This document shows, piece by piece, positions 20,641 to 23,748 of a stretch of 64,000 nt of DNA (position 1 is its first letter; each line of letters opens with the position of its first letter). The translations under genes were made by a program, and so were the position numbers. Origin of the DNA: Acidimicrobiia bacterium (GTDB lineage Bacteria; Actinomycetota; Acidimicrobiia; Acidimicrobiales; Bin134); assembly GCA_009842675.1 (NCBI GenBank), contig VYEX01000002.1, positions 88,018-152,017 on the forward strand. The letters are read 5' to 3'. The notes beneath the pieces are model-generated. The model was not told the DNA's origin. It worked only from the letters and a program-made list of their open reading frames with translations, and did not search any database.

Positions 20641-21492
20641 CTAGTCCAGTTCCAGCATCTGGTCGACAACCGCAGCCATAGCGGAAGCGTCGCGCTCGAC
20701 CTCCCGAGTCTGGCCACCGGCGTCGAGGAAGCGTTGCATCAGGGGCACGTGCTGGCCGGTAGCGGAGCAGGCCATCATCGCCTGGCTCTCGGTCAGAAGT
20801 CCGGGCTCCACTGGTCCGAGGGCAGCATCCACGGCTTGCTTGGCCTTGGCAATGGACAACCGCGGCGATGCGGCGATGCGACGGGCCACCTGGGCGGTGT
20901 GGGCCCGAAGCTCATCGGAGGGCAGCACCCGGTTGACGTAGCCGATGGCTGCGGCTTCCTCAGCGTTCACATCGTTGCCGGACAAGACAATCTCCAGTGC
21001 CCGGCTGCGGCCCACTAGTCGGGCCAGCCTTTGGGTTCCGCTGGCCCCGGGAATGATGCCCATGGCCACCTCAGGCTGGCCCAACACGGTGCGAGGTCCG
21101 GCGAAACGCATGTCGAGCGACAACAGAAACTCCGATCCGCCACCCCGGGCAACGCCGTCGATCATCCCGATGGTGGCCACCCCGATAGTTCGGCACCGGT
21201 CGAAGGTGACCGCGGCCATGTTGGGCTCGGCGGGCACATCAGCAGGGGCCTCCATGGCCAGGATCTGCTCTACGTCTCCGTGCATCAAGAAAAACTCCGG
21301 ATCCGCGCTCTCAAACACCAGCACGCTGACATCGTCGCCTGCTTCATTGGCAGCCTCGACCGCGTTCAGCAAGCCGATCAATCCGCCGATCAAGGCCCCG
21401 TCCACCAATTGCTTGGGTGGATGGTCGATCACCACCCAGCCGATGCTGTCGTCAACGCTGAGCGAAAACGGGCCAAAGGTTTGCTCACTCAT
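20641..21492 (-). CDS. Enoyl-CoA hydratase/isomerase family protein
   Basis: MIDGVARGGGSEFLLSLDMRFAGPRTVLGQPEVAMGIIPGASGTQRLARLVG. Confidence 0.9.
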   Translation of the reverse strand: MSEQTFGPFSLSVDDSIGWVVIDHPPKQLVDGALIGGLIGLLNAVEAANEAGDDVSVLVFESADPEFFLMHGDVEQILAMEAPADVPAEPNMAAVTFDRCRTIGVATIGMIDGVARGGGSEFLLSLDMRFAGPRTVLGQPEVAMGIIPGASGTQRLARLVGRSRALEIVLSGNDVNAEEAAAIGYVNRVLPSDELRAHTAQVARRIAASPRLSIAKAKQAVDAALGPVEPGLLTESQAMMACSATGQHVPLMQRFLDAGGQTREVERDASAMAAVVDQMLELD

Positions 21493-22102
21493 GAGTGCCC
21501 TCCCATTCATTCCAGAAACAGACTTCTGACAACGGCCTGCGGCGTACCGGGCCAAACGGTACCGCGGGCCAGCCCATCGGGATGCTGCACACAATGTGAA
21601 TGTCATCGGGTATCCCGAGTACGGCCCGCACCTCATCGGCCCGGAAAGAGTGCAGCGTGGTCAGCACTGTGCCCAAGCCCAGGCTACGAGCCGCCACCAG
21701 GAGATTCTGCACCGCGGGGTAGATCGAATGGCTCACTCCTCGCTGAGAGGAGCACACGATGATGAGCACCGGAACCTCGCCGATTTCCCGGGCGAATTTG
21801 GCAGCCTTCTCGACGATCACGGCCTCTTGGTTTCGCAGCCATTGGGTGCCGGCCGCGGCTGGATTGTTGTAGGCCTCTTCCTGGGCGTCCAGGTACAGCT
21901 CGCCCAACCGGCGGCGCTTCTCAGGATCGGTGACGACCACAAAGCGGGCGAACTGGCCGTTGATGGCGCTGGGGGCTCGGATGGCGGCGTCCAGCACCTG
22001 GGTGACTAACTCGTCGGGCACCGGGTCGGGCCGATAGCGCCGCACCGCCCGCTGGGTGTGCATGGCCTCGAACACGCCGACTTCGGCGGTTGCTTGGTTC
22101 AT
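21485..22102 (-). CDS. Nitroreductase family protein
   Basis: MHTQRAVRRYRPDPVPDELVTQVLDAAIRAPSAINGQFARFVVVTDPE; AVQNLLVAARSLGLGTVLTTLH. 8-bp overlap with the crotonase. Confidence 0.85.
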   Translation of the reverse strand: MNQATAEVGVFEAMHTQRAVRRYRPDPVPDELVTQVLDAAIRAPSAINGQFARFVVVTDPEKRRRLGELYLDAQEEAYNNPAAAGTQWLRNQEAVIVEKAAKFAREIGEVPVLIIVCSSQRGVSHSIYPAVQNLLVAARSLGLGTVLTTLHSFRADEVRAVLGIPDDIHIVCSIPMGWPAVPFGPVRRRPLSEVCFWNEWEGTHE

Positions 22103-22168
22103 GGGCGCAGAGAGTAGCGGGCGCTGAAATGAATAGGCTGCCCACGCTCTCGGCGGTAGCCTGCACCC

Positions 22169-22441
22169 ATGGGGCAAAAGCACCGCGTCACCATCACCTA
22201 TTGAGTTCCTTGAAACTATTCCGAGCACGCCGTGAGCGCTGCCAAGGACTTGCTTCAGAACTACCAGCACATCATTGAGGAACTCACCCTGGTGACCGGT
22301 GCATCGGGCATCTTCGACGTGGAAGTCGACGGTGAGATGCTCTATTCCAAGTACGCCACCGACTGTCACGCCGACCCCGGCGAGGTGCTCAAGCTGTTTG
22401 CCGAGCAGTACGCCCAAGGAGTGCTTGTCTACGGCTCGTAG
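22169..22441 (+). CDS. SelW/Rdx-family selenoprotein with UxxU motif (two in-frame TGA = Sec at residues 12 and 15)
   Basis: Reading TGA as Sec gives MGQKHRVTITY-U-VP-U-NYSEHAVSAAKDLLQNYQHIIEELTLVTGASGIFDVEVDGEMLYSKYATDCHADPGEVLKLFAEQYAQGVLVYGS*. TGAs at 22202-22204 and 22211-22213 replace both Cys of the family's YCxxC(N)Y motif. The downstream LTLVTGASGIFDVEVDGEMLYSK matches the family core. The ORF track shows only 22232..22441. Confidence 0.88.
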
Positions 22442-22464: not shown

Positions 22465-23748
22465 TTGATTGCCTACGCTACGGGCGTGGACGCCGAGACA
22501 GCAGATGTCACAGTAGATATCGATCATCAGACACCGGAGTTCGTTGCCAACCGCCACAGCCGCTACCACGAGCTGAGGGAGCGGTGCCCGGTGGTGTTCA
22601 ACGAGCACTACGGCGGGTTTTGGATGGTCACCGACTACGAGTCGGTGGTCCAAGTAGCCCGAGACAACGAGACGTTCGCCCACAAGTATGAGCCCGATGC
22701 CCCTGACGGCATCTCCTACCACGGCATCTGCGGCGTTCCTCGACCGGGTTATATCCCCCGCCAGGGAGTATCCGAGATCGACGGGCCCGAGCATGCCGAT
22801 CTGCGGCGGGTGCTGAACCCCCTTATGACCATCAATGCGGTGGAGAGCAATCGCCCCCGCATGGAGGCGGTGTCGGCCTGGTTTATCGACGAGATCATCG
22901 AGTCGGGTGAAGCCGACTTGGTGCTTGACTACACCACACCGGTGCCCGCCGTGTTGACGCTTGAGATGATGGGCATGGTTTCGTCTAACTGGCAGCACTA
23001 CGCCGACTTCTTCCATGCCACGTCGTCTTATGAGCCCACCGACGAGCGGTACCTCAGCGCGATCACCCACCAGCCGGACATGTGGGCTGAGCTCAGGGAC
23101 TTCGCCGCGTTCCGCCGAGAGAATCCGGCCGACGATGTCACCACTGCCTTGGTGACTTCCCCGCTAGATGGCCGAATGCTGAGCGATGACGAGATCACCG
23201 CCATCATGTGGAACCTGGTGGCTGGCGGTCTCGACACCACTACGTCGCTGGTGTCGTGGGGCCTGCACCACCTGGGCACTCACCCTGAGGACCGCGCCCG
23301 ACTCATCGAAGATCCGAGCCTTATTCCCGCCGCGGTGGAGGAGTTCCTCCGCTTCTACAGTCCCAGCGAGACCCTCACCCGCACCGCCTCCCGGGACGTG
23401 GAGTTGGGCGGCCGCCAGATCCGCCGGGGCGACATCGTGATGATCAGTTGGGTGACAGCCAACCATGATCCGGCGGTATTCGATGACCCCGGCAAAATCC
23501 GCGTCGACCGCGAAGCCAACAAGCATTTGGCGTTCGGTCTTGGGGGCCACCGCTGCATCGGGTCGTCGATCGCCCGCATCGAGTCGGAGCTCATGTTGAG
23601 GGACGTCCTCACTCGCATGGGCGACTACGAGATCGAACTCGACGGGTTCAAGCCCTATCCGGGCAACCTGCTCATGACCGGCGTTGTGTCGATGCCGGTG
23701 ACCTTCACGCCTGGGACACGCTCAGGGGCGGCCGATCCCTTCGCCTGA
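22465..23748 (+). CDS. Cytochrome P450
   Basis: Heme-binding FGLGGHRCIGSSIAR; I-helix AGGLDTTTSLV; TTG start. Confidence 0.93.
   Translation: MIAYATGVDAETADVTVDIDHQTPEFVANRHSRYHELRERCPVVFNEHYGGFWMVTDYESVVQVARDNETFAHKYEPDAPDGISYHGICGVPRPGYIPRQGVSEIDGPEHADLRRVLNPLMTINAVESNRPRMEAVSAWFIDEIIESGEADLVLDYTTPVPAVLTLEMMGMVSSNWQHYADFFHATSSYEPTDERYLSAITHQPDMWAELRDFAAFRRENPADDVTTALVTSPLDGRMLSDDEITAIMWNLVAGGLDTTTSLVSWGLHHLGTHPEDRARLIEDPSLIPAAVEEFLRFYSPSETLTRTASRDVELGGRQIRRGDIVMISWVTANHDPAVFDDPGKIRVDREANKHLAFGLGGHRCIGSSIARIESELMLRDVLTRMGDYEIELDGFKPYPGNLLMTGVVSMPVTFTPGTRSGAADPFA

What the first reader, a model, noticed from the sequence alone, without database searches (positions are those of the whole stretch)
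22169..22441. SelW/Rdx-like selenoprotein with a double-selenocysteine UxxU redox motif
The frame 22169..22441 is continuous apart from two TGAs nine nt apart, at 22202 and 22211. Reading both as Sec gives MGQKHRVTITY-U-V-P-U-NYSEHAV...LTLVTGASGIFDVEVDGEMLYSK.... These are the two redox-Cys positions of the Rdx/SelW motif (YCxxC.Y). Family members known to me carry CxxC or CxxU; replacement of both positions is unusual and would give a potential diselenide. The ORF track reports only the 69-aa tail, so standard annotation loses the active site.
Basis: partly seen in the sequence, partly recalled or inferred. Interest (0 to 1): 0.92.

Follow-up and report, generated by a model that had tools for sequence, protein, structure and literature searches.

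The report
Bacterial SelW with two selenocysteines
A small redox protein of sponge- or reef-associated marine actinobacteria appears to carry two selenium-containing amino acids in place of both of its usual active-site cysteines; the protein family is well known, but in bacteria it was catalogued with only one selenium.

Summary
Confirmed. Frame 22169-22441 is one 90-codon gene with in-frame TGAs at 22202 and 22211 and a TAG stop. Read through, it is an Rdx/SelW protein (Pfam Rdx 61.8 bits; TIGR02174 above cut-off; AlphaFold2 pLDDT 92.6, best PDB match SelW-related 2fa8). Both TGAs sit on the two redox-Cys columns. It is not an assembly error: 16 genomes of the genus, two of them single-contig, carry the same UVPU; four other genus members carry CVPU. 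All other SelW genes found in 397 genomes of the order have exactly one TGA. The gene tree needs one change, so UxxU most simply arose once from CxxU. The genome encodes tRNA-Sec(UCA), SelA, SelB and a SelD with its own TGA. One conserved hairpin with compensatory changes, shared with CxxU relatives, has its loop 17 nt after UGA2 and 26 nt after UGA1; both lie in the bacterial SECIS range, so it probably serves both codons (inferred). UxxU SelW was already reported in amphioxus and the alga Ostreococcus; prokaryotic catalogues (2022, 2026) list SelW-like proteins as CxxU only. So this is a new bacterial variant of a known family. Sec insertion and a diselenide are not shown experimentally.

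The parts
22169..22441 (+). selW-like gene, 90 codons + TAG, encodes a UVPU Rdx/SelW protein
   Evidence: Pfam PF10262 61.8 bits; TIGR02174 45.2 bits, cut-off 34.2
22202..22204 (+). UGA1 = Sec12; aligns with the first Cys of the CxxU/CxxC motif
22211..22213 (+). UGA2 = Sec15; aligns with the Sec of CxxU relatives
22225..22242 (+). Putative SECIS hairpin: stem 22225-22230 with 22236-22242 (one bulged base), 5-nt loop CGUGA at 22231-22235; loop begins 17 nt after UGA2 and 26 nt after UGA1
   Evidence: bSECIS rules from PMC13188914
22439..22441 (+). TAG terminator; TAG or TAA in all 15 distinct UxxU sequences
22157..22162 (+). TAGCCT, -10-like hexamer 6 nt upstream of the ATG, kept in the UxxU clade; suggests a leaderless transcript (inference)
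   Evidence: upstream DNA of the relatives
21485..22102 (-). Divergent nitroreductase-family gene; conserved neighbour in the UxxU clade, no functional link shown
22465..23748 (+). Downstream cytochrome P450 gene on the same strand (start 22465 or 22486), 23-44 nt after the selW stop; conserved neighbour in the UxxU clade

Best explanation
This is a genuine double-selenocysteine member of the Rdx/SelW family. Both UGAs are decoded as Sec by the organism's SelA/SelB/SelD/tRNA-Sec system. One SECIS hairpin (22225-22242), inherited from the ancestral CxxU gene, most probably serves both codons. The protein is a small thioredoxin-fold oxidoreductase whose UVPU loop lies between strand 1 and helix 1. 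By analogy with CxxU SelW, Sec15 would be the attacking selenol and Sec12 the resolving one, giving an internal diselenide where relatives give a selenylsulfide. The change C12 to U most simply happened once, within this genus. Shown: gene, motif, conservation, machinery, predicted fold, hairpin. Inferred: Sec insertion at each codon, use of one SECIS for both, diselenide formation, redox role. The physiological substrate is not known.
For: Rdx 61.8 bits and TIGR02174 45.2 bits. AlphaFold2 pLDDT 92.6, pTM 0.85; top PDB match 2fa8, TM 0.83-0.87; the family profile also finds mouse SelW 2npb. UVPU in 16 genomes of the genus, CVPU in 4. Of 397 order genomes only this genus has 2 TGA. One change on the gene tree, support 83/86. 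tRNA-Sec 67.5 bits with anticodon TCA, selB, selD with one in-frame TGA, selA; selA in 21 of 22 genus genomes. Purifying pattern upstream of UGA1: pN/pS 0.37 over codons 1-11; UVPU amino acids invariant. Third positions of codons 16-26 never vary, run-length permutation p = 0.007, as expected for an overlapping RNA element. Compensatory pair C27-G37 / U27-A37: 62 of 62 sequences can pair, a codon-20 third base following a codon-24 first base.
Against: No proteomic or Se-labelling data. Hairpin energy is not lower than that of shuffled sequence (z about -0.6). Only one pair shows strong covariation, with 2-3 independent switches, so a sign test has no power. The shuffle control of the whole helix is not significant on most measures. 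Which UGA uses the hairpin, and how efficiently, is unknown. Support for the UxxU clade is moderate (83/86).
Confidence: 0.88

Rival explanations
1. UGA2 is Sec, but UGA1 is read by a different route (near-cognate Cys or Trp, or low-level read-through), so the mature protein is effectively CxxU or WxxU.
For: The hairpin keeps a fixed distance to UGA2 in the CxxU relatives; UGA1 has no hairpin of its own, only 6 nt separate the codons.
Against: UGA1 is 26 nt from the loop, within the 16-37 nt SECIS range (PMC13188914). UGA1 is invariant in 16 genomes on a redox-Cys column, and a Cys codon is one base away and used by sister genomes, so long retention of a merely mis-read stop is unlikely.
Confidence: 0.07
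2. The gene is decaying or is a short regulatory ORF: UGA1 is a real stop and the 69-aa tail or a leader peptide is what matters, for example a selenium-responsive switch for the downstream P450 gene.
For: The P450 gene follows at 23-44 nt on the same strand in the UxxU clade; two UGAs in tandem would make translation very selenium-dependent.
Against: Purifying selection runs across the whole frame including the 11 codons before UGA1 and the tail; the motif is intact in all 16 genomes; the tail alone lacks the first strand and the active site. Shared neighbours may reflect shared descent only.
Confidence: 0.03
3. Sequencing or assembly error, or TGA reassigned as a sense codon in this lineage.
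For: None found; the window's own genome is a multi-contig assembly, which alone could not settle it.
Against: Same two TGAs in 16 genomes, two of them single-contig (G322, G409). TGA is the commonest stop of long frames in the window. Homologues have Cys or Sec there, not Trp.
Confidence: 0.01

Closest known systems
Bacterial SelW-like selenoproteins (PF10262 Rdx / TIGR02174), CxxU
   Same: Same fold, length, Y-C/U-x-x-U-x-Y motif region and SECIS hairpin; sister genes in the same genus are CxxU.
   Different: First redox Cys is also Sec here; catalogues PMC9312934 and PMC13188914 list CxxU only for prokaryotic SELENOW-like proteins.
Eukaryotic UxxU SELENOW (amphioxus, Ostreococcus lucimarinus; PMC3473315, PMC7539508)
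   Same: Same family, both motif positions Sec.
   Different: Eukaryotic; there the SECIS lies in the 3' UTR (general knowledge). The bacterial case uses an in-frame hairpin. The bacterial tree points to its own Cys-to-Sec event, i.e. convergence rather than shared descent (no joint tree was built).
SelL and Prx-like UxxU selenoproteins (Shchedrina 2007, cited in PMC2398784; Prx-like UxxU in PMC9312934)
   Same: UxxU motif in a thioredoxin-fold protein; a diselenide was reported for SelL (from the paper's title).
   Different: Different family (Prx-like), not Rdx.
Rdx proteins with CxxC, e.g. 2fa8, 3dex (SAV_2001)
   Same: Same fold, TM about 0.76-0.89.
   Different: No Sec; Cys at both positions.

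Membership tests
Rdx/SelW (PF10262, TIGR02174) | Profile match above curated cut-off | tested here: met
   PF10262 61.8 vs 22.6 bits; TIGR02174 45.2 vs 34.2 bits
Rdx/SelW (PF10262, TIGR02174) | Thioredoxin-like fold of the SelW type | tested here: met
   AF2 pLDDT 92.6; 2fa8, 2obk, 3dex, 2p0g top matches, mouse SelW 2npb lower
Rdx/SelW (PF10262, TIGR02174) | Redox C/UxxC/U motif in the loop after strand 1 | tested here: met
   Positions 12 and 15 fall there; both are UGA
Rdx/SelW (PF10262, TIGR02174) | Glutathione-linked redox activity | not testable with these tools
   No biochemistry
NF041051 SelTWH_Campy equivalog | Score over curated cut-off | tested here: not met
   66.4 vs 88 bits
Bacterial selenoprotein | Genome encodes SelA, SelB, SelD, tRNA-Sec | tested here: met
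Bacterial selenoprotein | SECIS downstream of UGA: 3-9 nt loop, G in first two loop bases, 16-37 nt spacing, MFE <= -7.5, 4-16 bp upper stem (PMC13188914) | tested here: met
   5-nt loop CGUGA, 6 bp with one bulge, 17 and 26 nt, -9.4 from UGA2 and -10.9 from UGA1. Caveat: not better than shuffles
Bacterial selenoprotein | Cys/Sec pairing with homologues at the UGA columns | tested here: met
   Column 12 Cys in CxxU relatives; column 15 Cys in CxxC relatives, e.g. L037 and 3dex
Bacterial selenoprotein | Sec physically present | not testable with these tools
   Needs MS or 75Se labelling
UxxU diselenide proteins (SelL-like) | Diselenide bond formed | not testable with these tools
   Inference only

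The most novel reading that the evidence does not exclude
A bacterial SelW in which a single ancestral SECIS hairpin was co-opted, without a new RNA element, to decode two UGAs nine bases apart, giving a diselenide thioredoxin-fold protein fixed across most of a genus of sponge- or reef-associated actinobacteria, convergent with amphioxus and Ostreococcus SELENOW.
Probability: 0.6. Interest if true: 0.62.

Novelty: new variant of a known kind. Interest (0 to 1): 0.52.

Why it matters
It gives a clean natural experiment: closely related bacteria with CVPU or UVPU in the same protein and with the same hairpin. That makes two open questions testable: what a diselenide adds over a selenylsulfide, and whether one bacterial SECIS can serve two nearby UGAs. 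It also shows that standard gene calling drops the active site of such genes.

Tried and rejected
A UxxU-specific lower stem (bases after UGA1 pairing with codons 30-32): appears in minimum-energy folds, but L003 breaks it and there is too little variation to test; rejected as unsupported. Better accessibility of the hairpin in UxxU than in sister CxxU genes (core pair probability 0.79-0.89 vs 0.01-0.59 when folded from codon 12): other CxxU genes also fold well and the ribosome would melt these bases; not used. Function from neighbours: nitroreductase, P450, thiolase and others are conserved in the UxxU clade, but that clade is recent, so no link is claimed. Viral contigs: no relatives. The genome search could not be centred on L014's phylum, so the survey outside Actinomycetota is limited.

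Full report
Observation. The frame 22169-22441 encodes 90 residues plus TAG, interrupted only by TGA at 22202 and 22211. The 69-aa tail that a standard caller reports is codons 22-90, from the GTG at 22232. The window lies in a 3.39 Mb, 95.5% complete genome (G000, contig 35). Its named relatives are Acidimicrobiia assemblies. One of them, Sva0996 bin134, comes from the sponge Aplysina aerophoba (PMC5649159). That the others are also sponge- or reef-associated is my inference from record names.

Family. With both TGAs read through, the protein matches Pfam Rdx at 61.8 bits (cut-off 22.6) and TIGR02174 SelT/SelW/SelH at 45.2 bits (cut-off 34.2). It misses the Campylobacterota equivalog NF041051 (66.4 vs 88). 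AlphaFold2 gives pLDDT 92.6, with strand 5-12, helix 18-35, and the motif at 12-15 between them. The best solved structures are SelW-related proteins 2fa8, 2obk, 2oka and 3dex. A profile of the family also reaches mouse SelW, 2npb.

The two TGAs are conserved. Of 22 genomes of the genus, 20 have the gene; 16 have two TGAs (UVPU) and 4 have one (CVPU). G322 and G409 are single-contig assemblies, so an assembly error is excluded. In the order, 111 of 397 genomes have a match, and every match outside this genus has exactly one TGA. In the class, every listed match but one has one TGA; the exception, L037, is CxxC; the list was cut before the weakest matches. In a 396-genome sample of the phylum, only the window's own genome has two TGAs; the rest have one or none. 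The gene tree, built without the two redox codons, puts UxxU on one side of one branch (support 83/86, one change). The simplest reading is a single Cys-to-Sec change at position 12 inside the genus.

Selection. Among 15 distinct UxxU sequences, pN/pS is 0.37 before UGA1, 0.30 for codons 16-29 and 0.28 for codons 30-90; UVPU has no amino-acid change. The codons before UGA1 are therefore under selection as protein. None of the 15 ends in TGA, while 27 of 48 CxxU relatives do.

Machinery. tRNA-Sec scores 67.5 bits (gathering 47) and ARAGORN reads anticodon TCA. selB (268.9 bits, plus a separate C-terminal match in the same open frame) and selA (403 bits) are adjacent on contig 74, the contig that also holds tRNA-Sec. 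selD (359 bits) carries one in-frame TGA itself. selA is found in 21 of 22 genus genomes. TGA remains the main stop codon in the window.

RNA element. All UxxU sequences fold a hairpin with loop CGUGA at 22231-22235. The loop begins 17 nt after UGA2 and 26 nt after UGA1. The bacterial SECIS rules, quoted in PMC13188914, ask for a 3-9 nt loop, a G in its first two bases, a 4-16 bp stem, 16-37 nt spacing and MFE <= -7.5; all are met from either UGA. The hairpin is shared with CxxU relatives at the same distance from UGA2. In an all-against-all scan of column pairs, the strongest covarying pair is inside this stem (columns 27-37 counted from UGA1, C-G versus U-A). All 62 sequences can pair there (35 C-G, 26 U-A, 1 U-G), with 2-3 switches on the tree. 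The third base of codon 20 follows the first base of codon 24, which protein coding does not require. Third positions of codons 16-26 never vary in the UxxU clade (run-length permutation p = 0.007). Limits: the fold energy is no better than shuffles, the whole-helix shuffle test is mostly not significant, and the loop GU overlaps a conserved Val codon. There is no room for a second hairpin between the UGAs, so I infer that one element serves both.

Mechanism. SelW proteins are small thioredoxin-fold redox proteins (established family knowledge). Here the C-terminal Sec15 would be the nucleophile and Sec12 the resolving residue, giving a diselenide. This follows from the family and from the SelL precedent; it is not shown. 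The cellular substrate is unknown. Neighbours (divergent nitroreductase, downstream P450, thiolase, enoyl-CoA hydratase, amidohydrolase) are conserved in the UxxU clade but prove no link.

Comparison with what is known. UxxU SELENOW is reported in amphioxus (PMC3473315; PMC7539508) and in Ostreococcus lucimarinus (PMC7539508). UxxU occurs in other bacterial families (PMC9312934, PMC13188914). Both reviews give prokaryotic SELENOW-like as CxxU only, and the second states one Sec. PMC3473315 also mentions earlier multi-Sec SelW reports without naming organisms in the passage read. I found no paper on Acidimicrobiia SelW. So the bacterial UxxU SelW seems unreported in the library searched, which lacks most subscription papers. 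I class it as a new variant of a known kind.

Noticed in passing
22157-22162 and upstream DNA of L001-L012: A TAGCCT -10-like hexamer sits 6 nt before the start codon in nearly all UxxU genes, suggesting leaderless transcripts; L003 starts with GTG.
   Followed up: partly
L033 (G000 contig 39, selD): selD of this genome itself has an in-frame TGA (GAG-U-AGK), so the selenophosphate synthetase is a selenoprotein too.
   Followed up: partly
L014:5001-5255: A Chloroflexi assembly carries a CVPU SelW about 50% identical to the window protein, grouping with this lineage and not with other Acidimicrobiia SelW, which hints at horizontal transfer or mis-binning.
   Followed up: no
L083-L086 versus L067-L082: The four CxxU genus members have smaller genomes (1.8-2.8 Mb) than most UxxU members (mostly 3.1-3.8 Mb) and mostly lack the conserved flanking genes; two genus members (G395, G407) have no SelW found though selA is present.
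   Followed up: no
L004-L012, codons 62-66: A UxxU subclade has a Cys-containing stretch DDCMRH or DDCCRH near residues 64-66 where the window has YATDCH; possible extra thiols near the active site, not examined.
   Followed up: no
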